Assembly (NCBI GenBank): GCA_002304345.1
Contig: NEUU01000001.1
Coordinates: forward strand, 434,001 to 498,000
Source of the DNA: Verrucomicrobia bacterium Tous-C9LFEB
GTDB taxonomy: Bacteria > Verrucomicrobiota > Verrucomicrobiia > Methylacidiphilales > UBA1321
Direction of reading: 5' to 3'
DNA length: 64,000 nt
Below the pieces are notes generated by a model that was not told the origin of the DNA, made no database searches, and saw only the letters and a program-made list of their open reading frames with translations. Below, piece by piece: positions 9,001-50,396 of this stretch; positions within the stretch are counted from its first letter, which is position 1; every line of letters starts with the position of its first letter. Position numbers and translations under genes: made by a program.

Positions 9001-9592
9001 CGATGGCCACGTCCTCGCCCGCGATTATGTGGATCGCCTCATTCGCCTGCACCACAAGGACAGCGCGGAGTTCGGCTATGCCGCCACGCAGGCCGCGCTC
9101 TGGAATCTGCACCGCGTCATGGCCATCAAGGACGAGATCTACGTCGCCCATCTTTTGACGAGCGAGGAAAAATACGCCCGCGATCGGGAACGCTACAACA
9201 TCGATCCCGAGCTCGGCGATAAGGTGGTCTACCGTCACCTCAACCGCCCCGAATTCATTCTCGGCGCGTGGAAGCTCCGCTTTCATATCCGGTCACAACC
9301 GTGGATGTTACGCCTCATGCGCCGCGGCAAAATTCTCCGCAAACTTCTTCCCCTCTGGCATCGCGAGGAAAAGCAATTCCGCGACTGGTATCTCCACGCC
9401 GCCGAACAATTCTCCATCGACGATCCCGCCGACTACCCGCAGTGGCTCACCCTCCTTCGCCTCCCCGAGGAAGCGCGCGGCTACCGCGAAGTCCGCTACC
9501 CCAAGATGCGCGACTGCCGCCAGCGCGGCGATGCGATTCTGACGGCAATTACCGGGACCGCATCCACCAGTCTTCACGTGGCCAACCGCTGA
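6011..9592 (+). CDS. Indolepyruvate ferredoxin oxidoreductase, single-chain (alpha, Fe-S and gamma parts fused, DUF6537-like tail)
   Basis: The 1193-residue enzyme should oxidatively decarboxylate aryl-pyruvates (or other 2-oxoacids) to acyl-CoA using thiamine diphosphate, with ferredoxin as electron acceptor. The N-terminal third is the pyrimidine-binding domain (GYPGSPVAG). The central part carries the TPP-binding region: a CPGCPHR motif, GDTGCYTM and the GDSTFFHSG...DNKTTAMTG stretch. Ferredoxin-like Cys clusters follow from about residue 640 (CENCLECTRATGCPG, then CVTDTACTKIHACPS). The gamma domain starts at about 720 (AGVGGMGI) and the last 350 residues resemble DUF6537. GGAG lies about 11 bases before the ATG. 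A serine hydrolase gene follows after 30 bases. The substrate assignment rests on family resemblance only. Confidence 0.93.
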   Translation: MKVDPRFLKEEGYEVFLGNELLVKGLLETEGGTHLWTGYPGSPVAGFFDCIESIQEIPRQYGIQATMANNEALSVAMLNGSQMSGMRSIAVMKSVGLHVAADALALGNLGGAHPEGGVVVVSGDDPWSSSTQVPADSRYLFKHLYMPILEPSTNQEIKDWIDLGFKLSRESELYLGYLVTTHQADGGGSVQARRNHFPRVNTHNKFSIDTTKVDFENKVLLPPRTWRKEQDFERRYQLLWQSAEKYGVNRTVLPAHPLPAGKKYPVGFVTSALAASYLEHALGELDLNDQVPVLKLGVTFPLNPKWISDFAAQVEILVVVEERRGFLEEQIAVILAQLHNHTPLYGKQFPFGLKGFPDTLGMNPSIVLSLITPLLQKLAGPTLPVDAKRLQSELDLIAQTASYEINLAPRTPTFCPGCPHRDSASVLIEVKKSFMDPAYMQRKHRREPVDLVFHGDTGCYTMLMFEPTKDLMHNYSGMGLGGGTGLGIDPFITNKQVVFMGDSTFFHSGQIAISNSVKNGQDITYIILDNKTTAMTGHQPTPGLELDIMGNPTFVQSLDKIIEAMVEQQQVDVIRTNPEQRDQYRSLLEETILRNGVKVIVADKECGITFHRRRNRAERAEAKKNGFVRTKSYININTDVCENCLECTRATGCPGLTFVDTNFGRKVQTDLSWCVTDTACTKIHACPSFEEITVVRSQKPLSRLEDLQQTEWPEPKPRPRHDRWHIYMAGVGGMGIAVSAATLVRAGHREGYDVIMCDKNGLAIRNGGVYSQITFLKRGEAERVSPLIPYGKADLILGIDILEAARGLDPAGNQRVGSPARTAAIINKAKTPTILTLLGKDDFCVDSIEADIRKYTDSKHYFSADISEVSERVFGSKIYANIIMLGVAYQLGQLPFSLASLEYGIQETMGSASAENWQAFKLGRKIVLDANKTTAKPDTYHSVVAEKSDILRRSGRHGEQLARDYWGIVSHAMNELRLDDLEQQRLLAERIYELIQYDGHVLARDYVDRLIRLHHKDSAEFGYAATQAALWNLHRVMAIKDEIYVAHLLTSEEKYARDRERYNIDPELGDKVVYRHLNRPEFILGAWKLRFHIRSQPWMLRLMRRGKILRKLLPLWHREEKQFRDWYLHAAEQFSIDDPADYPQWLTLLRLPEEARGYREVRYPKMRDCRQRGDAILTAITGTASTSLHVANR

Positions 9593-33335: not shown

Positions 33336-33422
33336 GGACGAGTGGCAGAGTGGTTGAATGCGGCTGACTTGAAATCAGCTTTACCCTCACGGGTAACGTG
33401 GGTTCGAATCCTACCTCGTCCG
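33336..33422 (+). tRNA. tRNA-Ser (anticodon UGA)
   Basis: The acceptor arm GGACGAG (33336-33342) pairs with CTCGTCC (33415-33421), followed by discriminator G. The D-loop is typical of tRNA-Ser. The anticodon stem GCTGA / TCAGC encloses loop CTTGAAA, giving anticodon TGA. A long variable arm (CCC-TCAC-GGG) and a T-arm GTGGG-TTCGAAT-CCTAC complete the 87-base class II cloverleaf. CCA is not encoded. A TTTTT tract directly follows. Confidence 0.95.
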
Positions 33423-33648
33423 CTTTTTGCGCACTTAGACGGGGTACGTCACGGCGCGTCAAACGATGACTATTCCCTTGTGTATCAGCGGGTTTTATTA
33501 AGTTGCCCCCTTACTACCGTGACAGGTAGCGAAACGTTTTGACTCGTTTCGACAGGGCTTTGTGTCAATTTTAGTGTCACTGCTTCCGCACCTAACCAAG
33601 GAAGGCGAGGCACGGCTTCATAGGTATGGATGTCGCTTCGCTACTCGC
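33423..33648 (+). other. Region after tRNA-Ser, possible integration scar
   Basis: No intact gene is present. The stretch contains GTGTCAATTTTAGTGTCAC (33561-33579), two GTGTCA half-sites six bases apart, in an otherwise gene-free area. That resembles sequence I recall before tyrosine recombinase genes inserted next to tRNAs. No recombinase coding is seen, and only the frame ATG GAT GTC... of nine codons occurs after it. The area ends at the stop codon of the giant adhesin gene. This is a weak suggestion of a lost or exchanged element. Confidence 0.25.
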
Positions 33649-36600
33649 CTATTGACCATAGCTCGATCCATAGGCGATCACGGAGAGAATAGAAGGCCGT
33701 TTCCCGGAATAGCTCATCTTTCCATGGTCCGCCACATTCCGTGTGTTTTGGGCCGTCAGGTCAATCTCCCATTGATTATAGCGATGCAGGAAGTCGTACT
33801 GGGCAATGAACTGCTGGAATATCGAGAAGTCAATGACAACCGGAATTGCTGGTGTGGGAGTCATCGGCTCGAGCGGGAGATTCTGCCATTGGAAGAATGG
33901 ATACCCATTGTTCTTGGCCAGATTGCCAACGATCTCAATTCCCCAGATGCCCGTACCGGGAGTGAAGTCCCATCCCGCATTCACGAAGATCGTCTTATCC
34001 CGCATATATGCCGTCGGCTGTCCGGTGATTCCAACAGCGGAACCAAGACCGACGCCGATCGTCGTGCCGGACGCTTGGAAGTCAAAGAAGCTGCCCGTGA
34101 CGATCCCGGAGTTGTAACCGGCAAAACCACCAGCGGCAGTGATCGCAGTTACGCGTCCGGTACTGTAAGCATGCGTAATGGAACCTTCATTATAGCCGAC
34201 TAGCCCGCCCACATTGGAAGTCCCGTTGACGGCTCCAGTGCTATAGGCTTCGGACACGACACTCGCCGAATCATTATATCCGAGTAGACCGCCCACCACA
34301 TCTCCACCCGTTACAGCTCCGGTGCTGGCGACTTGATAGAGAATGCCGCCATAATTCTCACCAATCAGACCACCTACGTCATAGGCACCATTCACCGCGC
34401 CCGAGGCCGTGGAATAATTCACCGTACCGCCACCATTGGCCCCAATAAGGCCACCCGTAGCGTAGCTGGTGCCGGTGACCGAGCCCGTAGCGGCACTCAT
34501 GGAAATTGTGCCCATGTTCAAGCCGACCAAACCACCGACCGCACCCTCACCGCTCACAGCGCCCGTTGCAATTGATCCGCTGATGGTTCCCGAATCGTTC
34601 AGACCGACCAAACCGCCAATCAACGCGGAACTCGGACGACCAGTCACCGCGCCACTGGCGGTGGAATTAATGATGGCGCTATAGGAAGCACCACCCACCA
34701 AGCCACCTACGAGATAGAAACCGGTGACGGTGCCCGATGAAGAGCTTGTGATAATGAAAGCCTCCAGCGTGGTGCCAACCAAACCGCCAACCATGCCTTC
34801 GCCCGAGACAGCACCCGTATTGCCGCTGGCGATAATAGCGCTATTCGTTCCGGCAGCTCCGACGAGACCACCAATGGCCGTGTTGCCCGACCTGATACCC
34901 AACACGTTGGCCGTGTTCAAAGAACTAATCAGCGTACTATTCTCCAAATCCCCGATAAGACCGCCGATGCCACTTTCGCCTCGAACAACGGCATTATTCG
35001 CTACCGCAAGGATTGTACTATTAGTCGCCACACCGACAATGCCGCCGACTACGTAAACGCCACTGACCGTTCGAGTATTGAGGACATCGCTGACCGTGCT
35101 ATCAATCAATACACCAACGATGCCGCCGATGTTTTCGCTGTATCCAGAGTCACCCCTGACACGACCACTGTTGGTACTGGAAAGGATATAGCTGCCATTG
35201 ATGCTTTGCCCCGCGATACCACCAACATTCGCCAATCCGACGATGCGTCCGCTATTTACGACGCCGCTGAGGGTGCTGCCACTGTTTCTACCGGCAATGC
35301 CCCCCGTATTCTGGTCACCCGTGATCGTGCCTTCGTTCGTACTCGACACAATCGTAGAATTGAAGTTAAGCGCGGCGACACCCGCCACAATGGCAGAGCC
35401 TGTAACGGCACCCCGATTCAGAGAGTCGATAATGGTACTGTTCACGTTGGCCCCGACAATACCGCCGGTATAGGTGGCCCCCATGACAGCGCCGGAGTTC
35501 ACGACTCCGCTGACGGTACTGTAATGATTATACCCAACGACGCCACCAATCACCTGTGCGCCGGAGACCGTTCCACGATTTGTACTGTCCAATATGTAAC
35601 CACTGTTTGTGCTTAAACCCGCGATGCCGCCAATGTATTGACTGCCTGAAATCGTACCCGTGTTGAGCACTCCACTGATCGTACTGGCTTGGTTCACGCC
35701 AACGATACCACCCGCGTAATCACCCGACACGGTAATCTCGCCTGAGTTCGTGCTGTTCGCGATGAACCCACCGTTAGTATTGAAGCCCGCAACGCCGCCG
35801 ATATAAGTATCGCCACTGACACTGCCCGTGTTCCGACTGGCAAGCACCGAACCGCCCTCGTTCTGTCCGGCGATGCCACCCACGAGGCTGGTCGTGGTCA
35901 GAATATCCGCACTATTTCTGCTGTCGGTGACCGTACTGAAATAATTCAGTCCAACGACGCCACCCAGAATCGAACCACCCGTGATCGTGCCATGGTTGGT
36001 GCTGGAGGCGATCGTACCGCTGTTCGTATTCACGCCCGCGATGCCGCCGATATTGATCGCACCGCTAACCGTGCCGCGATTGACACCACGGACAATGGAC
36101 CCGCCATCATTGGCCCCCACGATGCCACCCGTGTTGGTGTCGCCATTTACGGTGCCGCGATTCTGATTGTCGCTGACCAAGCCTGAGTTATGACCCGCAA
36201 TGCCGCCTGTATTCACTATGCCGCTGACGGTACTGCGATTCGTACTGTTGGTCACCGTTCCCGAATAGTTATAGCCTACGATACCGCCGGTATCCTCTAT
36301 GCCTGAGACGTCTCCCCGGTTGGTATTATTTTCAATCCATCCGCCGTCGTTGAATCCTGCAATGCCGCCCGAGTAGGTACTCCCCATCACCGCTCCCTTA
36401 TTAACGATGCCACTCATCGTTCCGGCGTAAATGGACCCGACACCACCACCGACATTCGATGTGCCATTCACAATCCCCGAATTGGTACTGTCGCTGAACC
36501 ACGAAATATCAGAGATCGAACCGATCAAGCCACCCACAGCGTCATCACCCGTCACCGCGCCAGTGTTGACCAAGCCACTCATCGTTCCGGCGGCAACCTC

Positions 36601-39600
36601 ACCAATCACCCCACCAACAAAAAGGGTGCCGAAGATCGTGCCACTATTGGTCGCATTTGTGACCACGCCTTCGTTATGGCCCGCAATACCACCCACCGCA
36701 ATGTAGCCGTTGATCAGGCCACTATTGAAGACGTCGCTCAGGGTACCCGAATTGTAACCGACAATGCCGCCTGTGATAACGGGTGAGAAGCCAGAGCCGG
36801 AAATCATACCGCTGTTCGTACTGTTGAGAATCGTCCCGGTGAGACTATTCGTTCCGGCGATGCCTCCGACATAAAGCGATCCCGTCACCGCGCCAACATT
36901 CACCGCGCCGCTGATGGTGCCATTGTTGATTCCAGCGATACCACCAATTCTACCCGCACCCATGACGATACCGCTATTCGTGCTACGGAGAATTTCACCC
37001 GCATTACTGCCTGCGATGCCACCGATCTGGCTACTGCCGGTGACTGTACCTTCGTTCACACTGCGCCGGATCACGCCCAAATTATTTCCCGCGATACCGC
37101 CCGCATAGGTATTGCCCTTAATGGCAGCGCTATTTGTGCTGAAAAGAATCTTGCCGCTGGCACTGTTGGTTCCAGCGATGCCACCGACATAAGTGGCACC
37201 TGTAACAAGGCCGATATTCACGCTCGAGGTAATCGTATCGTTATTGGAACCGGCAATACCACCAATGGAATAACTACCTGTGACCGTTCCCGAATTGGTA
37301 CTGCCATTGATCACAGCGAGATTACGTCCGACGATGCCACCAACTTCCGTGATTCCCAAAATGGTGCCGGCGTTGCTGCTGTTCGCAATCAATCCATTAG
37401 CCCCTTGTGAACCGCCCGCAATGCCGCCCACATAAGTCGAGCCGCTAATGGTGACGGTATTGAGAACGCTGGAGATACTGCCGTAGTTGCGACCGGAAAT
37501 GCCGCCGACATAAATAGTGCCAGCGACCAGACCCGAGTTCGTGCTGTTGGTCACAGATCCGTCCGTTTGGGACGCGCCCGCAATACCACCCGCGTAGGTT
37601 GTGCCCGTCACGCTGCCGGTATTGATGACCGCGGTGACCAATCCGTTATTGTCACCGATGATACCACCGATGTAACTGGAGCCGGTCACGGTACCGGAAT
37701 TTGTACTGGAATCAATCACTCCACTGCCCTGCGCACCAACCAAACCACCCACATAGCGATTGCCGGAAATCGCGCCCGTATTGGCACTGAAGAGGAGTGT
37801 GCTGCCGTCACTATTCCCAACAATACCACCGACGTAATTGCGTCCGCTCACCGTGCCTGTGTTGAGGCTGGAGCTGATCGTGCCGCTGCCGTTGTAGCCA
37901 GCAATGCCGCCCGTATTATCATTGCCGGTTACCCGGCCTGAATTCGTACTCCCTAAGATCGAAGCAAACAATTGGTAGCCCACGAGACCACCGGTATTAC
38001 TTTGGCCGACGACTCTGGAGATATTGGAGCTACCGCTCACGGTGGTGCCGAAATAAGAGCTGCCCACCAAGCCACCGACATTGGCACCACCATCCACGCG
38101 AGCCTTGTTGACGCTATTGATAATCATCGAGGTCAGCGTGGCGTTGCCGCTTACGCCATTCGCGTAACCAACCAGACCGCCGGTATTCAGTCCGGAACCA
38201 AAGATACGCTCCGAATTGGTGCTGCCAAAGAACAGGGTTGCAAAGGCATATCCGGCCAGGCCGCCGACATTATCCACACCGCTCACGGTGGCTGTATTCC
38301 GGCTATTCGTGATCGTGGAAATATACGCGTAGCCCACGATACCGCCCGTATTGGAAGCCGTGCCGACAACCAAACCACTGTTGCTACTATTCAAGATCCG
38401 GCTCTGCCACGTCTCGCCTACAATACCTCCCGTGTTCCCGGCCCCGGTCACCGCACCTGAATTATAGCCACTTGAGATCGTCGTCACACCCGCAAAACCA
38501 GCGATACCGCCGGCTTGGCTGGCACCGGAAATGACTCCGCTGTTGGTGGAGAAAACCACCGTGGAAGCAGTCAAAGTACCTGCAATGCCACCGACGCCTG
38601 TCGCACCCGAGATCGAGCCAGAATTGGTGCTACGGCTGATGAGCACTTCCGCACCTTGACCAACCACGCCACCCACAAAAGAGGACCCAGTGACGGTTCC
38701 AAGATTGGCGCTGACACTGATCGCGCTCTGATACGCATTGCCGATGAGACCTCCGACATAGTTACCTGTGGCGATCACTGTTCCAAAATTCCTGCTGGCA
38801 GTAACCGTACCCTGCAAATCCTGACCAATCAAACCACCCACGTAGTCGGCGCCGCTGACGGTGCCGGTGTTGATCACACCGCTGAGCGTGCTCGGATCAT
38901 TGTAACCGACGATGCCACCCACATTGGCATTACCCGTCACCGAACCAGAATTGCTGCTGTCCAAGATCGTACCGTTTTCATTGTACCCAATGAGCCCGCC
39001 CGTGTAATCCACACCGATGACCGCGCCCGAGTTGTAGCTGTTCGTAATGGTAAGACCGGTGGCGAAACCAACCAACCCACCGATCTGATAACCGTTGGTG
39101 GTGAGGATCGTCGCGCTATTGGAAAAATTAGAAATCACCGCCCCATTGGAAGCATAGCCGACCGCGCCACCCACGTCGGCGTTTCCGCTAACCGTACCAG
39201 TGAAGTGCGAAGCATTGTTGATCGAGCCGCCCTGCATGCGCCCGATGAATCCACCGACATTTATGTTCCCATCGACAGCGCCCGAAGTCGCCACATTGTA
39301 GACCATGGAATTCGTTGCGGTACCGATCAGTCCGCCCGTCGCACCACCCCTACCTGTCACGGCAACAGCGGTCGACAAGGCGCTAATCGTAACGGTATCG
39401 GCGTATCCAATCAACCCGCCCGCATCTCCCCCCGTGCTCTTCACGATTCCCGCCACACCGACACCGCCATTCAATATGGTACCAAACCCCTTACCAATAG
39501 CCCCACCGATATTCGAGATTCCGTTCACGTCGACATTCACAGTGAGGGAGCTGTAACTGCCCGTCGTATCGTAACCAGTCACACCACCCACTGAATCGCC

Positions 39601-42600
39601 GCCACTCATCGTGGCGGTGATGCTTCCCCCAACAATATTGCCGTTCGTGCTCGTACCGATCGCGCCACCCACGTTGTTACTGCCCGTTATCGTCGCCGTG
39701 ACGTTGACGCCACTGAATGAGCCGCCCGTGTTTGCGCCTGCGAGACCACCGATGTAATCGGTACCAATCACATATCCGCTGAAGGAGGAACCGTTGATGA
39801 AAACGGACGTTGCGGATCCAATGAGACCGCCCACATAATTAGCGCCCGAAACTGTGCCCGTCGCGTAGACACCAGCCAACGTCCCCGTACCTGCACCCAC
39901 AATGCCACCAACGTAATTGCCCGTGGCCGAGACCGTCGCGCTGGCGGAAGAACCACCAAATTGTCCGCCATCGTTGTATCCAACCAGACCGCCCACATTG
40001 TCCGCACCACTCACCGTGCCGGTGAAGTAGCCGCCGCCAATATAGCCGCCCGTATTATATCCAATTAATCCACCCACATAGCTGCCCGATCCTGATACAG
40101 TTCCAGAGGCGGCATTACTGCCCAGCGTGATACTGCCGTTATAAGAACCAATCAAACCGCCTATGTACGAGGTGCCCGTTACCGTTCCGGTAAAGACATT
40201 GCTATTGATCGAACCGCTCGTGGCGTACCCAGCAAGACCGCCGACATTTTGCACGCCGGAAATCGTTCCAGAAACCGTGTTGGCGTTGATGTTGCCATTG
40301 TCCGAATAGCCGATGATACCCCCAATATAGTCCCCGCCCGCAACCGTCACGCTGGACGTATTATTGCTCACCGAGGAATTGGTTCCCGTGCCCACCAGAC
40401 CACCCACATAGGTTGTTCCGAAAATGGATCCACTGACGCTATTCGCCGAAATGGAACCAAGCGATGCTCCCGCGATTCCACCCACATGAGTCGCTCCCGT
40501 CACTGTGACAACGGCCAGATTATTGTAAATACCACCACCATTTTGCAGACCGGCAAAGCCACCCACATTGTTACTACCCGAAACCGTTACCGTGAGGACG
40601 TTATTGACCAGATTGCTGCTTGAATCCATGGAGCCAGCGAGAGCGCCCACAAAATCATTTCCGGAAACCGTCGCGGTGACGTTCGAGTACTGAAGGGTCG
40701 TCCCAGCCAAATAGCCAACGGCACCTGCAACCAAGTCCGTTCCCACCACCGTCCCGGTATAGGTATTTTGCGCAACGCTTGAATTCGTCGCCGCACCCAC
40801 CATACCGCCAGCCTGCGTCCCCGTCGCTGTCACCGAGACCGTAGCCGTCGTCAGATAAATGCTTGCACCTACAGCTGCCCCCACCATGCCACCAACCGCG
40901 TTCACGCCGGAGACAGAACCGGTAACTCCCGAGTTCGTGATGGTTCCGCTATTCAAATACCCAATCAATCCGCCGACATACGTGTCGCCGCTCACCGCGC
41001 CAGTGTTGAGCACATTCGATACGAGTGAGCTGTCGTTCCAGCCAACGATACCACCGGTGTAGCTGCCAGTGCCAATCACTTTGTCGCTATTGGAGCTGTT
41101 TGTAATAAAGCCCGAATTTTTCGCCGCGATACCGGCAACATAATCGGTGCCGCTGATCGTCCCCGTGTTAGCGACCCCATCGATTGTTCCGACGTTGGTT
41201 CCGGTAACGCCACCGACGTAGTAAATGCCACTGACTTGCCCCGCATTGCGGCTGCCCCCAGTGATCATGCCCGTGCTATTATTCCAACCCACCAAACCGC
41301 CGGTGAAACTGCCAGTACCATTCACCGCCGCATAATTGCTGCTATTGGTCACCATGTTGTCATTGCGACCGATCAAGCCTCCCGTATTGAACGAACCTGT
41401 CGTGGTGACAATGCCGCTCGTTGTATTGACACTGTCAATGATTGTCCCGGAGTTCCGGCCGACCAAGCCGCCGATATTATTTCCACCCGTGGCCGTCACA
41501 GCGGCGTAATTGACCGCATTGGAAAGCGTGCTGTTATTGATACCCACCAAGCCGCCGACATTCACGGAATCTGTGGTAGTGACCGTGCTGCTAATGGAAT
41601 TCACCAAGCCGCTGATCGTGCCCGCATTGAACCCGATCAAACCGCCTATGGCCAGTCCACCCGTGGCGACGACCGCGGCATAATTCGCACTGTTGCTCAC
41701 CGTGCCGGAGTTGGTCCCGACCAAACCACCCACATAGCTGGCCCCGATACCCGTTACCGTAGCGCCGGCACTATTTGTGCCACTCACAATAAAGCCAGTG
41801 TTATTACCGACGAGACCGCCAATCATCTGACCGCCCGTGCTGGTAACTGTTCCCGTATTGAGACCACCGCTGAGCGTGCCCCGGTTGTAGCCGACCAAGC
41901 CACCGGCATTCGACTGACCCGCGCCGATCTGTACCGCGCCGCTATTAGCGACGTTGATCACCGAAGAAAGCGAATCGCTCCCGCCCGCGACACCGCCGAC
42001 ATTACTGCCCGTCGCGAGGACTGTGGCGCTGTTGGTGCTTGCGGTCACGATGCCCACATTGGCGCTCAGTCCCGCAATGCCACCGACATTCGTGAATCCA
42101 CTGACGGTGCCCGTATTGACGGTGCCACTGATCGTGCTGCGGTAATTATATCCAACGATGCCGCCCACTTGATTTCCGGTTCCGGAGATTATGCCGCTGT
42201 TGGTGCTGTTCGCGACGACGCTATCGTATGCCGCGAGACCGACGATACCACCAACCATGGTTCCCCCGGTGACCACCGCCAGATTGGACGCAATCTGAAT
42301 ACTGGATGTATTGGAATACCCGGCGATGCCGCCCACGTATATGGAGCCCGTAACCATCGAACCGCTGGCAGCGGTCACATGACTGATCGTACTCGATCCG
42401 GCATAACCCACGATACCACCAGCGAAGCTTCCCGTCGCCTTAACCGCGCCCGTGTTGGTCGCGTTCGAGAGGGCCGTCGCATTCATTCCACCAATAATAC
42501 CGCCCGCCGAGTTATTACTATCGACGGCCCCAGTGTTCGCGACAAACGAAACGGTGGAGAGCCAGCTATTCCCGATAATTCCACCCGCATAAGCGGCAAA

Positions 42601-45600
42601 CGCATCCAGAAGGGCCAAGATATGCCCCGAGTTGGTGCTCTGGGTGATAACGCCTTGATGATCGTATCCGACGATACCACCTACATTACCCCATCCGCTC
42701 ACGGTCGAATTATTCACAGCGCCGGAAACAGTGCCCGCTTCTCCATAACCAACGATGCCTCCAATATCGGTCAAGTAACCACTGACGACGCCACTATTCG
42801 TCACGTTCGTCACGGTGCCACCGTCATTGCGTCCAGCGATACCGCCCACCTGGCTCATTCCCGACACCGCGCTATTATTGGAACTGCTGCGGATCGCGCC
42901 TCCATAGTTGGCACCCACGAGACCGCCGAGATTCTGTCCACCGCTTGAGGTAATGATCGCGTAGTTGGAGCCGTTCGTCACCGTGCCGGTGTTGTGCCCG
43001 ACCAAGCCGCCGACGTCTGTCGAATAGGTGGTCGTGACCGTACCACTGACAGAATTAATGCTGCCGCTGATCGTACCGTCGTTCCAACCAGCCACGCCGC
43101 CAATGTAATTCTGGGACGTCGCGGTCAAGGCGCCGTTATTGACGCTATTCACAATCGTGCTGGCGGTCGCATTGTAACCGGCGATGCCGCCGACATAACT
43201 GCCCGTCGCGAGGATGGTGCCACTGTTGCTGCTGCCGGTGATCACTCCCGTCTGAGTGTTCACGCCTGCGATGCCCCCCACATAATGACCGCCGGTGACG
43301 CTACCAGCATTGAAGCTATTGCTCACCGTGCCAAAATTCCGCCCCGTAATGCCGCCGGTATTGGTTCCACCTGTCGCAGTCACCGCCGCGTAATTGGTGC
43401 TGCCGAATATCAAATCTCCCGCTGTATAGGACTGACCATTCCGACCAACCAAACCACCAACATCGTTCGATCCGGTCGTCGTCACAGTCGCGCTTGCCGC
43501 ATTGACGCTGGCAATGATCGATCCGCCTTCGCCGAGACCGACCAAGCCACCGATCAGATCACCACCCGTGGCCGTGACAGCAGCGTAGTTCGTGCTGTTG
43601 GTCAGCGTGTAGGCATTATCACCAATCAAACCACCCACCTGATATGTATTCGTCGTCGTGACTGTACCCGTAACGGCATTGGAGCTTCCCTTTACCGTCC
43701 CGATATTAACACCAACCAGACCGCCAATGTTACTACCATTCTGAGCCGTCAACGCACCCGCGTTCGAACTGTCGAGCACGTAACCAAAGTTCGCTCCCAC
43801 CAATCCACCGACCATGAAAGAATCCGCGATAACGAGATTACCACTGATGGAATTAATGCTGGCGGAAAGCGTGCCGTCGTTCTGGCCGACCAAACCACCG
43901 ATGTAAGAAGCCCCCGCCGAGACACTCAGCGTGCCGTTGTTGACACTATTTAGTACCGACCCGCTACCCGCGTTGTGTCCGACAACTCCGCCGATATAGC
44001 TGCTACCGTTAGCCGTGACTCCGCCTGCGTTGGAACTATTGGAGACAGTGCCGTAGTTATATCCAGCCACGCCTGCAACCCTACTAGAGGCAGTGGCGAT
44101 AACCGCGCCGACATTCACACTATTACGGATCACGCCAGCAGTATCGTTATACCCGACAAGACCACCAAAATTAGAATTCTGGTTGGCGAGGATCGTGCCC
44201 GCGTTGGAGCTCGACGATACCAGCCCGCTATTGGAACCGACGATGCCGCCGAAATTCATAGCACCGGTCGCACCGCTGATCGTGGCAATGTTATAGCTTC
44301 CTGTAATGGTTCCCGTGTTGCCACCCGCGATGCCACCAACGCGCGTACTCCCCGTCACCGATCCACCGGTGTTGGCGACGTTGCTAATCCAACTACTATC
44401 TGCAGTGCCCACAAGAGCCCCGACTAAATCGGAACCAACGATGGTTGCATTGGCGAGAGTGAGGTTCGACACGGTGGAGTTCAGAATCGCCCCGAATAAA
44501 CCGATGCGATCCTCCGAGGGGCGGTTAATGTAAAGTCCGCTAATTGAGTACGTGCCGCCGTTGAATGTGCCCGTGAAAGCACCTGAGACGGTACCGATCG
44601 GAACAAATCCCAAGCCGCCATTCCAGTTTACGGTACTGCTCGCATTGATATTCCCGCCGAGAATATACGAGAACGTGAGGGGCGAATAGGCGACACCTTG
44701 CAGTCCGTATACATCCATCAATACGAAAGGATCACCGACAGCGCCGGTACCACCCGCAGCGCGGAGAAATTGCGCATTGGCCCCGTTGACGCTGAAATGA
44801 GTGAGGGCGGTAAATCCCGGCAAGCTTCCGCTGTTCTGTGCCCAGCGACCTTGGGCGAGCGCGAAGCTATTCACATAAAGAGCCCCCGTCGCGAAAATCG
44901 AAGTTCCCACAGCATTGGAATTCGTGGCGCTCAAAATCAAGCCGCCGTTCGTCGCGGTAATCGTGCCGTCCAGCGTGATGGTGTGTCCCGCCGAAAGCGT
45001 GAGCGTGGTCGCCGCCGACCAATCGAGCGCGGCAGCCGCTTGCAGCGTTAACGTTTCCGTCAGTCCATCGAGAGAGTCCGCTGTCGTGATGGTGAGATTA
45101 CTCAAGGCCAGTTGGGCGTTGACCCAGCCATCATTGAAAACATTGAAGGTGCCACCCGGAGCAGTATTGGCCCCAGCCTGAATGATTACCGAACCCGGAT
45201 CGATGAGGAGCGAGCCGAAAGCACCCTGATCCGCGCTCAAATCGACATGGCCGGAAATCGCCACGTCGCGATAACCGCTCAACTCCACAAATCCCCCATC
45301 GCCACCAAGTTGGCCGCCGCGCGCCGAACCTGTTCCGTTGAAGATCAGCGAGTTGGTCGCGATGATCGCTGCCATACCGCCAGAGCCATTCCCTTCGCCG
45401 TCGACGTCAAATGAGGAACCCACAGCGAACTCGATGTCCTGCGCCTTGACGCTGATGTCGCCACCCTTGCCGTTCGACTTCTTCGCGACAAGACTGCCCG
45501 TATTGAGGATTTTTCCACCACTCGCTGCGAGAATGATCTTTCCGCCCACGTTCGCCACGCCTGTCGCGCGAATGGTTCCGCCGTTATTAATCGCCAACGC

Positions 45601-46332
45601 GTACGCATTTCCTCCCGCCGCTTTCAGCTCTACCTGCGCCGCGCGAATCGCCCCCATGTTATTGACCGCACCATTCGAACCCGCCGAAATAAAGAGCCGT
45701 TCGTCACCCTGCTGCTGCAGCCAGACATCGTGACCGCCAGCCAGTCCGATCGTGCCATTGGGCGCGGTGATGGTTCCTTCGTTGGACACCTGCGAGGCGA
45801 TCATGATCACGTTTCCACCAATGGCCGTGATATTGCCCTTGTTGACGATCGAGGCATTGGAATCGCCCACGAAATGGAGATTCCCACCTCCCATGAACTG
45901 GTTGTTGTCGATGTCGAGAGTGGAAGCCACAAAACCGCCCGTGTTGATCGTCGCTCCTGCGCCGATCAAAATACCGTTGGCATTGATCAGGAAGACCTGA
46001 CCGTTGGACTGCAAGGAACCGTAGATCGCCGAGAGATTGCCGCCCGTCACGCGATTCAGCACCGCGCTGCTCGCGTCGGGTTGCAGGAACTTGGTCAATT
46101 CACCCAGACCAATCGAGAAGCCTTGCCAGTTGATGATCGCGCGCGAACTATTCTGCGTGACAGTCACCGTGCTGCCAGCCGTGTTGATACTCGCACTGCC
46201 ACCCACGACTTCGCCGCCCGTCGGGTTGGCCAGAGCCAGCGAAGGCGCTAAATGCCACGATAAAAAAAGAACGAACAGAATGGCATTGCCCAGTCGTCTG
46301 CAATTAGCTGCATGTCTTTTCTTTACCGGCAT
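33649..46332 (-). CDS. Giant two-partner-secretion-type adhesin with about 130 GLUG-like repeats
   Basis: The encoded protein has 4227 residues. A long signal peptide (about residues 1-36, ending SLALA) precedes a filamentous-haemagglutinin N-terminal secretion domain. Key strings there are NPTGGEVVGGSA, INWQGFSIGLGEL, FLINANGILIG and VSNEGTITAPNG, covering about 40-300. A further FHA-like region leads at about 600 into consecutive VGGIVGxNxGTIxxSxNxGxVxG repeats of about 27 residues. The end (GWDFTPGTGIWGI...YPFFQWQ) is the usual terminal cap, then about 95 non-repeat residues. No beta-barrel, LPxTG or PEP-CTERM anchor is present, and no TpsB transporter gene lies in the window. The start at 46332 is supported by the ribosome site GGGGGAA. 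Such proteins mediate adhesion or contact. Confidence 0.93.
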   Translation of the reverse strand: MPVKKRHAANCRRLGNAILFVLFLSWHLAPSLALANPTGGEVVGGSASINTAGSTVTVTQNSSRAIINWQGFSIGLGELTKFLQPDASSAVLNRVTGGNLSAIYGSLQSNGQVFLINANGILIGAGATINTGGFVASTLDIDNNQFMGGGNLHFVGDSNASIVNKGNITAIGGNVIMIASQVSNEGTITAPNGTIGLAGGHDVWLQQQGDERLFISAGSNGAVNNMGAIRAAQVELKAAGGNAYALAINNGGTIRATGVANVGGKIILAASGGKILNTGSLVAKKSNGKGGDISVKAQDIEFAVGSSFDVDGEGNGSGGMAAIIATNSLIFNGTGSARGGQLGGDGGFVELSGYRDVAISGHVDLSADQGAFGSLLIDPGSVIIQAGANTAPGGTFNVFNDGWVNAQLALSNLTITTADSLDGLTETLTLQAAAALDWSAATTLTLSAGHTITLDGTITATNGGLILSATNSNAVGTSIFATGALYVNSFALAQGRWAQNSGSLPGFTALTHFSVNGANAQFLRAAGGTGAVGDPFVLMDVYGLQGVAYSPLTFSYILGGNINASSTVNWNGGLGFVPIGTVSGAFTGTFNGGTYSISGLYINRPSEDRIGLFGAILNSTVSNLTLANATIVGSDLVGALVGTADSSWISNVANTGGSVTGSTRVGGIAGGNTGTITGSYNIATISGATGAMNFGGIVGSNSGLVSSSSNAGTILANQNSNFGGLVGYNDTAGVIRNSVNVGAVIATASSRVAGVAGYNYGTVSNSSNAGGVTANGSSYIGGVVGHNAGSGSVLNSVNNGTLSVSAGASYIGGLVGQNDGTLSASINSISGNLVIADSFMVGGLVGANFGYVLDSSNAGALTAQNGSNIGGLVGVNIGTVKGSSNAVTGTVTTTNTYQVGGLIGDNAYTLTNSTNYAAVTATGGDLIGGLVGLGEGGSIIASVNAASATVTTTGSNDVGGLVGRNGQSYTAGDLIFGSTNYAAVTATGGTNTGGITGRNFGTVSNSFNAGSVTGGHYVGGIAGVNTQTGVITGSSNSGTILATGSYVGGIAGYNATASTIVNSVNNGALTATSQNYIGGVAGWNDGTISGSINSVSGTVTTTYSTDVGGLVGHNTGTVTNGSNYAIITSSGGQNLGGLVGANYGGAIRSSSNNSAVSGMSQVGGIAGRNDGGTVTNVTNSGVVSGYLTDIGGIVGYGEAGTVSGAVNNSTVSGWGNVGGIVGYDHQGVITQSTNSGHILALLDAFAAYAGGIIGNSWLSTVSFVANTGAVDSNNSAGGIIGGMNATALSNATNTGAVKATGSFAGGIVGYAGSSTISHVTAASGSMVTGSIYVGGIAGYSNTSSIQIASNLAVVTGGTMVGGIVGLAAYDSVVANSTNSGIISGTGNQVGGIVGYNYRSTISGTVNTGTVSGFTNVGGIAGLSANVGIVTASTNSATVLATGSNVGGVAGGSDSLSSVINVANSGAVQIGAGQSNAGGLVGYNRGTLSGGLNTGTVTSTGGQMIGGLVGNNTGFIVSGTNSAGATVTGIGASYVGGLVGTNSGTVSNSANYAAVVATGGLAIGGLIGFNAGTISGLVNSISSTVTTTDSVNVGGLVGINNSTLSNAVNYAAVTATGGNNIGGLVGRNSGTIIDSVNTTSGIVTTTGSFNTGGLIGRNDNMVTNSSNYAAVNGTGSFTGGLVGWNNSTGMITGGSRNAGQVSGIYYVGGVTGTNVGTIDGVANTGTISGTDYVAGIAAKNSGFITNSSNSDKVIGTGSYTGGIVGWNDSSLVSNVLNTGAVSGDTYVGGLIGYLNSGTITNSGVTGSVSGVNAVGGMVGAAVGASIYLTTATVSVTATGTQAGGMVGAATNSSVAQNTYTGTVVGTDLVAGAVGYLAGTTLQYSNVTATVSGNDFVGALAGSMDSSSNLVNNVLTVTVSGSNNVGGFAGLQNGGGIYNNLAVVTVTGATHVGGIAGASLGSISANSVSGSIFGTTYVGGLVGTGTNSSVSNNTSSVTVAGGDYIGGIIGYSDNGNINANTVSGTISGVQNVGGLAGYATSGSINSNVFTGTVTGTSYIGGLIGSYNGSITLGSNAASGTVSGSGSYVGGLIGYNTGGYIGGGYFTGTVSGADNVGGLVGYNDGGQFGGSSASATVSATGNYVGGIVGAGTGTLAGVYATGTVSGANYVGGLIGSATSVFINGSSFSGYVIGTDYIGGLAGANTGGSFSGVNVTATITGSNNVGGAIGTSTNGNIVGGSITATMSGGDSVGGVTGYDTTGSYSSLTVNVDVNGISNIGGAIGKGFGTILNGGVGVAGIVKSTGGDAGGLIGYADTVTISALSTAVAVTGRGGATGGLIGTATNSMVYNVATSGAVDGNINVGGFIGRMQGGSINNASHFTGTVSGNADVGGAVGYASNGAVISNFSNSATILTTNGYQIGGLVGFATGLTITNSYNSGAVIGVDYTGGLIGYNENGTILDSSNSGSVTGNANVGGIVGYNDPSTLSGVINTGTVSGADYVGGLIGQDLQGTVTASRNFGTVIATGNYVGGLIGNAYQSAISVSANLGTVTGSSFVGGVVGQGAEVLISRSTNSGSISGATGVGGIAGTLTASTVVFSTNSGVISGASQAGGIAGFAGVTTISSGYNSGAVTGAGNTGGIVGETWQSRILNSSNSGLVVGTASNTGGIVGYAYISTITNSRNTATVSGVDNVGGLAGYAFATLFFGSTNSERIFGSGLNTGGLVGYANGVSGNATLTSMIINSVNKARVDGGANVGGLVGSSYFGTTVSGSSNISRVVGQSNTGGLVGYQLFASILGSTNSGRVTGNDNTGGIAGYNGSGTISSSLNTGTVSGRNYVGGIVGNSDGSTLLFSANTGAISGNRYVGGLVGAQGSGVIDSSTNSGTVTGSSYIGGIIGDNNGLVTAVINTGSVTGTTYAGGIAGASQTDGSVTNSTNSGLVAGTIYVGGISGRNYGSISSVLNTVTISGSTYVGGIAGGSQGANGLIANSSNAGTILGITEVGGIVGRNLAVINGSTNSGTVTGSYSIGGIAGSNNDTITSSVNIGLVTGATYVGGIAGTNSASGKILFSTNSAAIKGNTYAGGIAGNNLGVIRRSVNEGTVTGSSQIGGIAGSNAGEILRSTNSGIVMGAGRIGGIAGINNGTISGAVNVGAVTGSLYVGGIAGTNSLTGTILNSTNSGMISGSGFSPVITGGIVGYNSGTLSDVFNSGLINGYIAVGGIAGHNEGVVTNATNSGTIFGTLFVGGVIGEVAAGTMSGLVNTGAVTGDDAVGGLIGSISDISWFSDSTNSGIVNGTSNVGGGVGSIYAGTMSGIVNKGAVMGSTYSGGIAGFNDGGWIENNTNRGDVSGIEDTGGIVGYNYSGTVTNSTNRSTVSGIVNTGGIAGHNSGLVSDNQNRGTVNGDTNTGGIVGANDGGSIVRGVNRGTVSGAINIGGIAGVNTNSGTIASSTNHGTITGGSILGGVVGLNYFSTVTDSRNSADILTTTSLVGGIAGQNEGGSVLASRNTGSVSGDTYIGGVAGFNTNGGFIANSTNSGEITVSGDYAGGIVGVNQASTISGVLNTGTISGSQYIGGIAGLSTNSGYILDSTNRGTVSGAQVIGGVVGYNHYSTVSGVVNSGAVMGATYTGGIVGANVNSTIIDSLNRGAVTGSAIVAGVAALNFNSTIVSSTNEGTITGDQNTGGIAGRNSGSTLSGVVNSGRIVGLANVGGIAGQSINGSYILSSTNSGRVRGDSGYSENIGGIVGVLIDSTVSDVLNTRTVSGVYVVGGIVGVATNSTILAVANNAVVRGESGIGGLIGDLENSTLISSLNTANVLGIRSGNTAIGGLVGAAGTNSAIIASGNTGAVSGEGMVGGLVGTTLEAFIITSSSSGTVTGFYLVGGLVGGASYSAIINSTASGAVTGRPSSALIGGLVGLNDSGTISGSIATGAVSGEGAVGGLVGLNMGTISMSAATGSVTGTSYATGGLIGANGGGTVNYSTASGAVNGAYDVGGLIGENYGGILYQVASTGAVTGGDVVGGLLGYNDSASVVSEAYSTGAVNGTSNVGGLVGYNEGSITHAYSTGRVTAITAAGGFAGYNSGIVTGSFFDFQASGTTIGVGLGSAVGITGQPTAYMRDKTIFVNAGWDFTPGTGIWGIEIVGNLAKNNGYPFFQWQNLPLEPMTPTPAIPVVIDFSIFQQFIAQYDFLHRYNQWEIDLTAQNTRNVADHGKMSYSGKRPSILSVIAYGSSYGQ
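34060..44520 (-). repeat. Coding tandem repeat array (GLUG-type units)
   Basis: Roughly 10.5 kb of the adhesin gene consists of imperfect repeats of about 27 codons. The estimate of about 130 units comes from length divided by period. The protein pattern is strong (VGGLVG, STNSGTVTG, GIAG), while the DNA copies differ at many synonymous positions, so the array is old or under protein-level selection rather than freshly duplicated. Long open frames appear on the opposite strand as a by-product. Confidence 0.9.
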
Positions 46333-46873: not shown

Positions 46874-49180
46874 GTGAAAAATAAAGCACTCCTCTACGTG
46901 TTGGCATCCTTCATGGCGACCTTGGGATCGCTATGCGCGGATGGATTCATCGCGGTCACGCACCCCGTTTCAGTCCCAGCAGGGCACTTTTCCTTTGCGC
47001 CGCTGGAGGTGAGTTATCACCATGTAAGCGTCACAATCGATGGTCAGATCAGCACCACAACAGTGGAAGAGGAATTCTACAATCCCAATACCCAGCAACT
47101 TGAAGGCACTTATCTCTTTCCGGTGCCAAAGTCAGCGCAGATCGATAAATTCTCCATGGAGATTGGAGGCAAATCAGTGTCGGCGGAACTATTGCCGGCA
47201 GACAAGGCACGCACCATCTACGAGGATATTGTTCGGCGCAAACGCGATCCCGCGCTTCTCGAATACGCGGATCGCAGTGTGTTCAAGGTTCGTATTTTCC
47301 CCATCGAAGGCCGCAGCCGTAAACATGTCAAAATCACCTATACCGAAGTACTGAAATCTGATTCTGGTTTGGTCAGCTATCTCTATCCACTCAATACCGA
47401 AAAGTTTTCTTCTGCGATCATTCCCGACGTAAGCGTTACCGTGCAGATCAACTCGAAGCAACCTCTTGCTTCGATCTACTCGCCCTCGCATGACGTACAG
47501 ATCAAGCGCACCGATGCCAAATCAGCGCTTATTCGGTTCGAAGCGAAGAACGTACGTCCAGATAGTGATTTTCAACTCTTCTTTGCCCCGCTGAAAAAGG
47601 AAGTGGCGATTGATCTCCTCACTTATCGAACCGAGGACGGAGACGGTTACTTTCTCCTACTCGCCTCACCGGGCATCGATACGAAAACCAAGGCCATGCC
47701 GAAAGATGTCACCTTTGTACTCGACACCTCGGGTTCCATGGCATCTGACAACAAGCTCGTTCAGGCCAAGAAAGCCCTGCAATTCTGTCTCGCCAATCTG
47801 AATGAGAACGACCGGTTTGAGATCGTCCGGTTTTCGAGTGAAAGCGAGATGTTCTTTGGCAAGTTGACCCCTGCCACGGACAAGGCCGTGGCGGCAGCTC
47901 AAAAATTTGTAGCGAGTCTCACTCCTAACGGCGGCACAGCCATCGACGAGGCCCTGCGTCAATCCGTCGCTCTACGCTCCCCAAAAAGCGAGCGTCCATA
48001 CGTGATTGTCTTCATGACAGACGGACAACCTACCGTTGGAGAGAATCGAATAGAAAAAATCGCGCTCAATGCGGACAAGGCATTAGCTGACGGCACGCGT
48101 ATCTTCTGCTTCGGTCTCGGCACCGATGTGAATGCGCACCTGCTGGATCGGATCGCAGAACGTAGCCGCGCGGTCAGTGATTACGTACTGCCCGAGGAGG
48201 ATATTGAAATCAAAGTATCCAGCTTCTTCGGCAAGATCCGCGAACCTGTCTTGGCCAATATTAAACTCACATTTCCTGACGACATTCGTGTCAGCAAAAC
48301 GTATCCGCAGGCCTTGCCCGATCTGTTCAAGGGACAGCAACTGATACTTTGTGGCCGCTACCGTGGTGAGGGCTCCGGCAATTGCATGATCGAAGGAACC
48401 ACCAACGGTGTGACTCAGAAATTCGCCATGCCAGTCACCTTCCCCAAGAAGAACACAGAACAGTCTTTCGTGGCTCGACTCTGGGCGTCACGTCGGGTTG
48501 CCTACCTTCTAGATGAGATTCGGCTGAACGGAGAGAATGACGAACTCAAAAACGAAGCCACTGCGCTTGCTCGTGAATTTGGATTGATCACGCCCTACAC
48601 GGCATTCCTGATCCTCGAGGATGAACAGCGCCGGAATGTAGCTAGCGATAATCAGATCATGCGCGAACTGGGCAAAGATCGACTGGCCCAGACCAAGGCT
48701 CGCGATGCCTACAGCTCATTTAAATCCAGCACAAGCGGCGATGATGCTGTCAGCGTGGCGCGCTCGCAGAATGCCATGAAACAATCTACTCAGGTGGATT
48801 CGGCCATGGCGGTGAGTAATGCCGAGGCGTATCGCACACTGAATGTTCCTGCGACGGTCGCCGGGAGCTCTCGTACGCGTGGAGCCCCTGCGGAATCAGC
48901 GGCTTCCCGACTTGTACAATACACGCAGCAGACGCGCTATGTAGCCCAACGGGCCTTCTACCAGAACGGCACCCAATGGATCGACAGCAATGTCTCGCGT
49001 CAAAACTACGCCAGGAATGTGCGACTTAAATTCGGATCGCAGGAATACTTCGATTTCGTATCCAGTCATCCCGAAGCCCGACCTTATCTGGCCCTCGGTC
49101 AGAACGTCAAAGTTGCATTGAACGATACCGTCTACGACATCTACGACGACGCCTCTGATTCCACCCCTCGCACCAACTAA
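46874..49180 (+). CDS. VIT and von Willebrand factor A domain protein (inter-alpha-trypsin inhibitor heavy chain-like)
   Basis: The 768-residue protein starts at a GTG, supported by the signal peptide MKNKALLYVLASFMATLGS that follows it. The VIT domain spans about residues 35-170 (VTIDGQISTTTVEEEFYNPN, LEGTYLFPVPKSA, IYEDIVRRKRDPALLEY). A vWA domain follows with an intact MIDAS motif DTSGS at residue 284 and a later MTDGQPTVGE. Family members bind matrix or proteins through the metal site. A roughly 200-residue tail with no recognised domain ends the protein. It is followed 16 bases later by a second vWA gene with a similar start (MKNK), and both are near a sensor kinase pair. Confidence 0.9.
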   Translation: MKNKALLYVLASFMATLGSLCADGFIAVTHPVSVPAGHFSFAPLEVSYHHVSVTIDGQISTTTVEEEFYNPNTQQLEGTYLFPVPKSAQIDKFSMEIGGKSVSAELLPADKARTIYEDIVRRKRDPALLEYADRSVFKVRIFPIEGRSRKHVKITYTEVLKSDSGLVSYLYPLNTEKFSSAIIPDVSVTVQINSKQPLASIYSPSHDVQIKRTDAKSALIRFEAKNVRPDSDFQLFFAPLKKEVAIDLLTYRTEDGDGYFLLLASPGIDTKTKAMPKDVTFVLDTSGSMASDNKLVQAKKALQFCLANLNENDRFEIVRFSSESEMFFGKLTPATDKAVAAAQKFVASLTPNGGTAIDEALRQSVALRSPKSERPYVIVFMTDGQPTVGENRIEKIALNADKALADGTRIFCFGLGTDVNAHLLDRIAERSRAVSDYVLPEEDIEIKVSSFFGKIREPVLANIKLTFPDDIRVSKTYPQALPDLFKGQQLILCGRYRGEGSGNCMIEGTTNGVTQKFAMPVTFPKKNTEQSFVARLWASRRVAYLLDEIRLNGENDELKNEATALAREFGLITPYTAFLILEDEQRRNVASDNQIMRELGKDRLAQTKARDAYSSFKSSTSGDDAVSVARSQNAMKQSTQVDSAMAVSNAEAYRTLNVPATVAGSSRTRGAPAESAASRLVQYTQQTRYVAQRAFYQNGTQWIDSNVSRQNYARNVRLKFGSQEYFDFVSSHPEARPYLALGQNVKVALNDTVYDIYDDASDSTPRTN

Positions 49181-49196
49181 ACCACACCCTACCCCC

Positions 49197-50396
49197 ATGA
49201 AAAACAAAACAAACCTGCTGCTCCTCTCTACCGTGGCAATGGCCCTCATCGGCTGGGGCATGCATCACGCCAAGCAATCGTCCTCTACCTTAACGGAATA
49301 CTGCACACTTGATACGGCGGTTAAAAGTGAAGTGGCCGCTACAGCTCCGCAGATTGAAGTCTGCTTTGTACTCGATACCACTGGTTCCATGCATGCCTTG
49401 ATCGAAGGCGCCAAACAGAAGATCTGGAGCCTCGCCAACGAAATGGTCAAAGCGAAACCCACACCGCAACTCAAGGTTGGGCTGGTGGCCTACCGAGATA
49501 AAAACGATGCGTATGTCACTCAGTCATTCCCGCTGACCGCCGATCTTGATGCGGTTTATGCCCAGTTACAAAAATTCACTGCCGATGGGGGTGGCGATAC
49601 GCCGGAGTCAGTGAATGAAGCGCTTGCGGATGCCGTGCACAAGATGGCTTGGAATTCGGATCGGCATACACTCAAGATCATCTTTCTGGTCGGCGATGCG
49701 CCGCCGCACATGGATTATGCCAACGGTCCAAAATTCCCTAATATCTGCGCGGAGGCCGTGAAGCAGGACATCATCATCAACACCATTCAATGCGGCGATA
49801 TCAAGGAAACGGCAAGTTTCTGGACACGTATCGCGCAGTTGTCGGAAGGTCATTACGCGTCGATCGCCCAAAGTGGCAACGTTGCCGTGATCGCGGCGCC
49901 ACAGGACAAGGAACTTGCCGAACTCAATAAGGAAATCGGTCAGACCCTTGTTGCCTACGGCACGCCCGAACAACAGCGGGAGGTGAAGGCTAAGCAGGAG
50001 GTTTCCGAAAGATCCTTTGCGTCGGTGGCGACAGCTCCGGCGGCAGCAGATCGCCTGCTCTACAATTCCACCACTCGAAAAACGGTGCAGGGCGGCAATG
50101 ATCTGGTGGAAGACTACGGCAAAGATGCAACGTTGGTCGGCAATATTGGTAAAGAGAAGTTGCCGGAGCCGTTACAAAAGATGAATACCACAGAGCTGGA
50201 AGGCCATCTCAAGACACAACAGGCCAAGCGTGCAGCATTACAAACACGCATTGACCAGGTTAGCCGTGAACGCGCGGCTTTTCTCGAAGAAGAACACAAA
50301 AAACTGGCGGCGCGCGATGGGAATAAAGATTCGTTCGACGACGAAGTGGCTCGCATTCTACGCGTGGAAGCGGCCAAAAAAGGGCTCACGTATTGA
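49197..50396 (+). CDS. Exported von Willebrand factor A domain protein
   Basis: This 399-residue protein has a signal-like N-terminus (MKNKTNLLLLSTVAMALIG). A vWA domain starts with FVLDTTGSMHALIEGAK, an intact DxTGS MIDAS, followed by KVGLVAYRDKNDAYV and FLVGDAPPHMDY. The C-terminal 130 residues are rich in charged residues and look coiled coil (LKTQQAKRAALQTRIDQVSRERAAFLEEEHKK). It lacks the VIT domain of the upstream gene. Translation of the two genes is probably coupled by the short 16-base gap. The bidirectional hairpin at 50413 ends the unit. Confidence 0.9.
   Translation: MKNKTNLLLLSTVAMALIGWGMHHAKQSSSTLTEYCTLDTAVKSEVAATAPQIEVCFVLDTTGSMHALIEGAKQKIWSLANEMVKAKPTPQLKVGLVAYRDKNDAYVTQSFPLTADLDAVYAQLQKFTADGGGDTPESVNEALADAVHKMAWNSDRHTLKIIFLVGDAPPHMDYANGPKFPNICAEAVKQDIIINTIQCGDIKETASFWTRIAQLSEGHYASIAQSGNVAVIAAPQDKELAELNKEIGQTLVAYGTPEQQREVKAKQEVSERSFASVATAPAAADRLLYNSTTRKTVQGGNDLVEDYGKDATLVGNIGKEKLPEPLQKMNTTELEGHLKTQQAKRAALQTRIDQVSRERAAFLEEEHKKLAARDGNKDSFDDEVARILRVEAAKKGLTY

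What the first reader, a model, noticed from the sequence alone, without database searches (positions are those of the whole stretch)
33649..46332. 4227-residue adhesin with about 130 GLUG-like repeats
The gene is 12.7 kb, very large for a bacterial gene. Its secretion domain is FHA-like and its body is almost entirely one repeat type, about 27 residues per unit. Most GLUG proteins known to me carry far fewer units, so the length and composition suggest a long fibre for cell-cell or surface contact.
Basis: partly seen in the sequence, partly recalled or inferred. Interest (0 to 1): 0.6.

Follow-up and report, generated by a model that had tools for sequence, protein, structure and literature searches.

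The report
Giant surface adhesin with GLUG repeats
An uncultured verrucomicrobial bacterium carries a very large gene for a secreted, rod-like surface protein made of about 120 similar coils, one of several such genes in its genome and probably used to stick to surfaces or other cells; it is large but of a known kind.

Summary
Window 33649-46332 (minus strand) is one open frame of 4227 aa with a signal-like N-terminus, a TPS (FHA-type) secretion domain (PF05860, 105.9 bits), a GLUG array at aa 630-4052 and a non-repeat tail. The unit count is slightly lower than stated: 116-121 by a self-made profile, about 124 by length. Collapse or mis-assembly is unlikely; the longest exact repeat is 19 bases. 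AlphaFold2 models the last array stretch as a beta-solenoid resembling the GLUG regions of IgA1 proteases. Size and composition are not unique: the same genome has three other GLUG TPS proteins, and a congener (UBA1321) has a 5616-residue frame with 161 units. In the genus both ends are conserved while unit number varies widely. No TpsB lies beside the gene; the genome has two elsewhere, one adjacent to a GLUG paralogue, so secretion in trans is inferred. A CDI toxin is not supported. Best reading: a two-partner-secreted GLUG-solenoid adhesin rod, roughly 60 nm long, in a Methylacidiphilales relative. It is a new, very large member of a known kind. Ligand, exposure and expression are untested.

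The parts
46228..46332 (-). signal-peptide-like N-terminus, aa 1-35, ending ...LALA|NPTGG
   Evidence: read from the translation; helix aa 3-28 in the AF2 model at low confidence; no signal-peptide program was run
45493..46149 (-). TPS secretion domain PF05860, aa 62-280
   Evidence: 105.9 bits, cut-off 33.5; profile match to solved EtpA, HMW1 and HxuA secretion domains
44446..45492 (-). linker region aa 281-629, conserved among the genus paralogues; includes a roughly 64-residue insert shared only with the C36 paralogue among the ten aligned
   Evidence: alignment A1
34177..44445 (-). array of about 116-124 GLUG units, aa 630-4052, beta-solenoid
   Evidence: AF2 model of the last 560 aa; VIA-align to IgA1 protease GLUG regions
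33652..34176 (-). end cap (WDF..IW...NNGYPFFQWQ) and C-terminal tail, aa 4053-4227; the last ~100 aa modelled at pLDDT under 50
   Evidence: alignment A3; found in 3 of 60 genomes of the order, the three being the genus members
33336..33423 (+). tRNA-Ser(tga), the next feature beyond the 3' end of the gene; no candidate immunity gene between

Best explanation
A TpsA-type exoprotein. Sec exports it, the TPS domain is recognised by a TpsB pore encoded elsewhere in the genome (most likely the one beside the C24 GLUG paralogue), and the chain threads out and folds into a TPS cap followed by one long GLUG beta-solenoid. At the textbook 0.48 nm per coil (recalled), about 124 coils would give a stiff, charge-poor rod of roughly 60 nm that holds the cell to plant debris, mineral or other cells. 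Shown: domains, periodicity, predicted fold, gene family, absence of a local TpsB. Inferred: secretion in trans, surface location, rod length, adhesive role.
For: TPS domain over cut-off and profile match to the adhesins EtpA and HMW1. GLUG over cut-off. AF2 pLDDT mostly 80-98 over the GLUG stretch, with VIA Z 25.0-23.2 to IgA1-protease GLUG regions (7uvk, 6xjb, 7uvl, 6xja, 3n6z). TpsB (PF03865) in the own genome at C14 and C24, with POTRA_2; in 3 of 3 genus genomes a TpsB lies directly by a GLUG TpsA. A published review says that some TpsBs secrete more than one TpsA (PMC5422565, passages). The orthologous C36/L016 pair shows dN/dS 0.164 over its array, so arrays of this family appear to be kept by selection. 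Composition: 20.8% Gly, 163 charged residues (K, R, D, E) in the 3423-aa array, one Cys, in the signal region. A paper on candidate family UBA1321 links it to live and dead plant remains (PMC8706344, passages).
Against: No TpsB is adjacent. The HJP_bin11 orthologue of the sister gene C36 is broken by 10-base and 1-base deletions and two stops in the C36 frame, so such genes may be dispensable or the assembly may err. The exact NPNG and NPNL motifs are absent from this copy, although sister copies read NPNG where this one reads NANG. No ligand-binding domain was found. The N-terminal model is only moderate (mean pLDDT 74.3). Foldseek's own E-values for the GLUG model are weak (best 3.6e-3).
Confidence: 0.72

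Rival explanations
1. A decaying or unexpressed relic of a repeat-gene family that has lost its local TpsB.
For: No adjacent TpsB. The sister orthologue in HJP_bin11 is frameshifted. The gene is not at the same site in UBA1321: the upstream VIT/VWA gene there has no GLUG gene beside it in the 14 kb read.
Against: 12.7 kb without a stop. The C36/L016 pair shows purifying selection in the array (dN/dS 0.164), though that is the sister gene and not this one. The distal half of the array stays colinear with UBA1321.
Confidence: 0.12
2. A contact-dependent inhibition (CdiA-like) stick whose C-terminus is a toxin.
For: TPS domain plus a long rod, as in CdiA (PMC5422565 passages).
Against: No VENN motif and no immunity-like gene between the stop codon and the tRNA-Ser. 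The C-terminus is conserved among paralogues instead of variable. The last 383 aa match only Glug in Pfam.
Confidence: 0.04
3. A secreted structural-layer or biofilm-matrix protein rather than a ligand-specific adhesin.
For: GLUG solenoid of near-uniform, charge-poor coils and no binding domain. Several copies of different length per genome.
Against: The TPS-domain relatives found by profile are adhesins and host-factor binders. Nothing here separates matrix from adhesin.
Confidence: 0.2

Closest known systems
TpsA exoproteins of two-partner secretion (EtpA, HMW1, FHA type)
   Same: TPS secretion domain with profile match to EtpA, HMW1 and HxuA structures; long beta-rich body
   Different: Body is GLUG units, not FHA-type repeats; no TpsB in the same operon; 4227 aa
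GLUG-containing IgA1 proteases (Pfam PF07581 and M26 N-terminal region)
   Same: GLUG repeat; the model aligns to 7uvk, 6xjb and 7uvl, profile hits
   Different: Those carry a protease and, from memory, fewer coils; the Peptidase_M26_N hit here is below its cut-off (23.4 against 27.7 bits)
UBA1321 relative with a 5616-aa frame (L109)
   Same: Same N-terminus (60%), same tail (49%); 49 units colinear at 51% identity
   Different: 164 units against 118 by the same measure; different neighbours
Giant proteins Cag_0614/0616 of Chlorobium chlorochromatii (PMC4053972, passages)
   Same: Very large hemagglutinin/adhesin-like genes, proposed to hold cells together
   Different: 36,805 and 20,646 aa; likened there to RTX-type calcium-binding repeats, not GLUG

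Membership tests
TpsA (two-partner secretion exoprotein) | N-terminal TPS domain PF05860 over the curated cut-off | tested here: met
   105.9 bits against 33.5; missed when the whole protein was scanned
TpsA (two-partner secretion exoprotein) | Sec signal peptide before the TPS domain | tested here: inconclusive
   read by eye; no predictor run
TpsA (two-partner secretion exoprotein) | NPNG/NPNL motifs in the TPS domain (motif names recalled) | tested here: inconclusive
   no exact match in this protein; NANG at the place where sisters have NPNG
TpsA (two-partner secretion exoprotein) | TpsB partner in the genome | tested here: met
   two, at C14 and C24, both with POTRA_2
TpsA (two-partner secretion exoprotein) | TpsB in the same operon (usual, not obligatory) | tested here: not met
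   none near the window gene
GLUG repeat proteins (PF07581) | repeats over the family cut-off | tested here: met
   118.3 bits whole protein against 20.5; 9 stretches in the last 383 aa
CdiA / CDI toxin | VENN-type motif before a variable C-terminal toxin | tested here: not met
   no VENN; C-terminus conserved among paralogues
CdiA / CDI toxin | immunity gene directly downstream | tested here: not met
   only small overlapping frames, then tRNA-Ser
Autotransporter (type Va) | C-terminal beta-barrel | tested here: not met
   the last 383 aa match only Glug in Pfam; the last ~100 aa have pLDDT under 50
Adhesin (function) | binds a surface or cell | not testable with these tools
   no assay available

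The most novel reading that the evidence does not exclude
The genus keeps a set of GLUG rods with the same two ends but graded lengths (about 20 to more than 160 coils), exported by one shared TpsB. Length is tuned by gain and loss of units mainly in the signal-proximal half of the array, while the distal half and the genus-specific tail are held constant, so that the same tip is presented at different distances from the cell.
Probability: 0.2. Interest if true: 0.5.

Novelty: new member of a known kind. Interest (0 to 1): 0.27.

Why it matters
It shows that GLUG arrays reach well over 100 coils on TPS secretion domains in the uncultured genus around UBA1321, and it gives a natural length series (about 20 to 160 coils with the same ends) for asking how rod length is set and whether one TpsB serves many TpsA proteins. 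Otherwise it is an expected kind of surface protein.

Tried and rejected
CDI toxin: no VENN, no immunity gene, conserved tail. Autotransporter: no barrel domain found. Mis-assembly or collapse: longest exact repeat 19 bases in the gene, and 24 bases or fewer shared with the four own-genome paralogue loci examined. Tandem duplication at DNA level: none seen. tRNA-Ser as an island attachment site: neither end of the tRNA (15-25 bases) recurs in the window. Tail in the wider phylum: the window's tail alone matched 1 of 145 genomes, its own; the tail alignment matched 3 of 60 of the order. Colinearity with C24: score 5.2 against a null maximum of 4.6 in 12 permutations, not convincing. Rfam on the window gave one hit, the tRNA. 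NCBIfam gave no hit for the giant protein. The promoter and terminator scan upstream was no better than shuffles. Literature: searches for 'GLUG motif' (2 papers), GLUG + hemagglutinin + repeat (2), giant genes + bacteria + filamentous hemagglutinin (1), IgA1 protease + GLUG (0), Methylacidiphilales + adhesin (0), two-partner secretion + Verrucomicrobi (6) and UBA1321 (2) listed nothing on this protein by title; the library is open-access PMC only, and only listings were read except for the passages cited. The VIA-align list does not exclude other folds.

Full report
Observation. The frame 33649-46332 on the minus strand codes for 4227 aa with no internal stop and no N. A TTG eight codons upstream of the ATG is the mechanical start of the longer frame; the ATG, preceded by AGGGGG, is the likelier start (sequence read, inference). 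GC is 56.2% against 55.6% for the window.

Architecture. The protein has a hydrophobic signal-like N-terminus ending ALA-NPTGG, a TPS domain at aa 62-280, a conserved linker to aa ~629, a GLUG array at aa 630-4052, and an end cap with a tail. The full-length hmmscan reported Glug at 118.3 bits and a sub-threshold Peptidase_M26_N match but missed the TPS domain. The N-terminal piece alone shows TPS at 105.9 bits. In the own-genome GLUG search, 51 matches at E <= 0.001 were listed, 13 of them in this frame, with 150 of 255 candidates scored.

Units. A profile made from 39 of the protein's own 27-residue units found 121 units, 116 of them above 5 bits; 20 shuffled copies gave 0-2 above 5 bits. 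Mean identity between any two units is 0.298, and at lags 1 to 4 it is 0.336-0.348, so neighbours are slightly more alike, as old local duplication would leave. At DNA level the array has decayed: no self-match at E <= 1e-10, longest exact direct repeat 19 bases.

Fold. With seven sequences in the alignment, AF2 models the last 560 aa as a regular solenoid of short strands, pLDDT mostly 80-98 over the first ~400 residues, with the last ~100 residues under 50. Foldseek against PDB gave no match at E <= 0.001. VIA-align of Foldseek's top chains (440 of 441 aligned) puts IgA1 protease GLUG regions near the top (7uvk Z 25.0, rmsd 3.4, 263 aligned; 6xjb Z 23.9; 7uvl Z 23.7; 6xja Z 23.4; 3n6z Z 23.2), level with Vag8 (7akv Z 25.0) and followed by other beta-helices. 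The N-terminal model is weaker (mean pLDDT 74.3), but Foldseek matches EtpA (8vbb E 6.6e-10) and HxuA (4rt6 E 1.8e-5), and less strongly the HMW1 secretion domain (2odl E 4.4e-3), as does the sequence profile. One coil per ~27 residues and 0.48 nm per coil (textbook value, recalled) gives about 60 nm; this is inference.

Family in the genome and genus. The window lies in a 4.28-Mb, 36-contig genome of the same genus as the record titled Candidatus Methylacidiphilaceae bacterium UBA1321 and as HJP_bin11 (G015 and G016 are taken to be the genomes called G002 and G001, because their match places are identical). The genome has five TPS proteins: the window gene, C36 (3307-aa frame, 89 units), C24 (2173, 45 units), C7 (at least 1518, cut by the contig end, 29 units) and C14 (1027, 0 units). 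UBA1321 has a 5616-aa frame with 161 units above 5 bits; HJP_bin11 has frames with 54, 55, 36 (cut by the contig end) and 20 units. In the family, 11 of 12 genomes have a TPS domain. In a draw of 194 genomes of the phylum, 16 have GLUG matches at E <= 0.001. Of 80 named TPS loci fetched with the N-terminus (the best 80 of 140 relatives), 20 hold at least 3 units, and apart from the two genus loci (L016, L017) none exceeds 13; flanks were cut at 10 kb, so these are lower bounds, and the unit profile is tuned to the window protein.

Array evolution. C24 and its HJP_bin11 counterpart share 45 colinear units at 81.5% identity, with 48 and 56 units in all (score 181.8 against a maximum of 29.5 in 12 permutations). 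The window gene and the UBA1321 giant share 49 colinear units at 50.7%, all in the distal half of the window array (unit indices 60-117 against 96-162), while the proximal 60 and 96 units do not align (32.7 against 8.2 in 12 permutations). The C36 gene and its HJP_bin11 orthologue are 92.8% identical over 8050 bases. They differ by two 81-base insertions, each one unit long as aligned, and a 3-base deletion, and the HJP_bin11 copy also has 10-base and 1-base deletions and two stops in the C36 frame. dN/dS over the array is 0.164; the value for the tail is unusable because dS is saturated or misaligned. The broken orthologue is told as evidence against the importance of that gene, or as an assembly fault; I cannot tell which.

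Secretion. Two TpsB genes exist in the genome, none near the window gene. One lies directly after C24, and in UBA1321 and HJP_bin11 too a TpsB lies directly beside a GLUG TpsA carrying the same tail. The window N-terminus is 59% identical to C24 and 44% to C14, so C24's TpsB is the likelier partner. Completeness is 89.67%, so a further TpsB may be missing. A review states that some TpsBs secrete more than one TpsA (PMC5422565, passages seen).

Tail. An alignment of seven tails finds matches in 3 of 60 genomes of the order, the three genus members. The tail's fold and role are unknown. Its conservation between paralogues argues against a CDI toxin.

Surroundings. Upstream, divergently, lie two VWA proteins (the first with a VIT domain) and beyond them a two-component pair; downstream lie tRNA-Ser and then, on the other strand, GH30 and an MFS transporter. 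Several of the nearby genes scanned are glycan-acting enzymes. UBA1321 has the VIT/VWA gene (66% identity) without a GLUG gene beside it in the 14 kb read, and HJP_bin11 has only weak matches to it, so the site is not shared.

Judgement. A real, very large TpsA with a GLUG solenoid: a new member of a known kind, with a genus-level family of variable length. Adhesion is the most likely role but rests on family resemblance.

Noticed in passing
L016:9869-20000 (G016:C23): HJP_bin11 orthologue of the C36 giant gene is broken by 10-base and 1-base deletions and two stops; pseudogene or assembly error.
   Followed up: partly
window 46874-50396: Tandem VIT/VWA and VWA proteins resembling TIGR03788 sortase-target proteins, below the family cut-off (302.7 against 551.65 bits); no search for a sortase was made.
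   Followed up: partly
window 33336-33423: tRNA-Ser(tga) abuts the 3' end of the giant gene, but no repeated tRNA end was found in the window.
   Followed up: yes
L109:1086-17843: The UBA1321 giant gene has a 74-base exact internal repeat, longer than any in the window gene (19 bases), a possible recent unit duplication.
   Followed up: no
G014 (same family, unnamed): 16 TPS-domain matches but only 2 TpsB matches, a strong excess of TpsA.
   Followed up: no
L115:2-12004 (G015:C65): A 4001-aa frame with a weak TPS match (57.8 bits) and no GLUG units; other family genomes have frames of about 3800-4500 aa with similarly weak TPS matches.
   Followed up: no
window 6011-9592: 1193-aa protein with TPP-enzyme C-terminal, POR and DUF6537 domains (indolepyruvate ferredoxin oxidoreductase-like, name from memory).
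   Followed up: no
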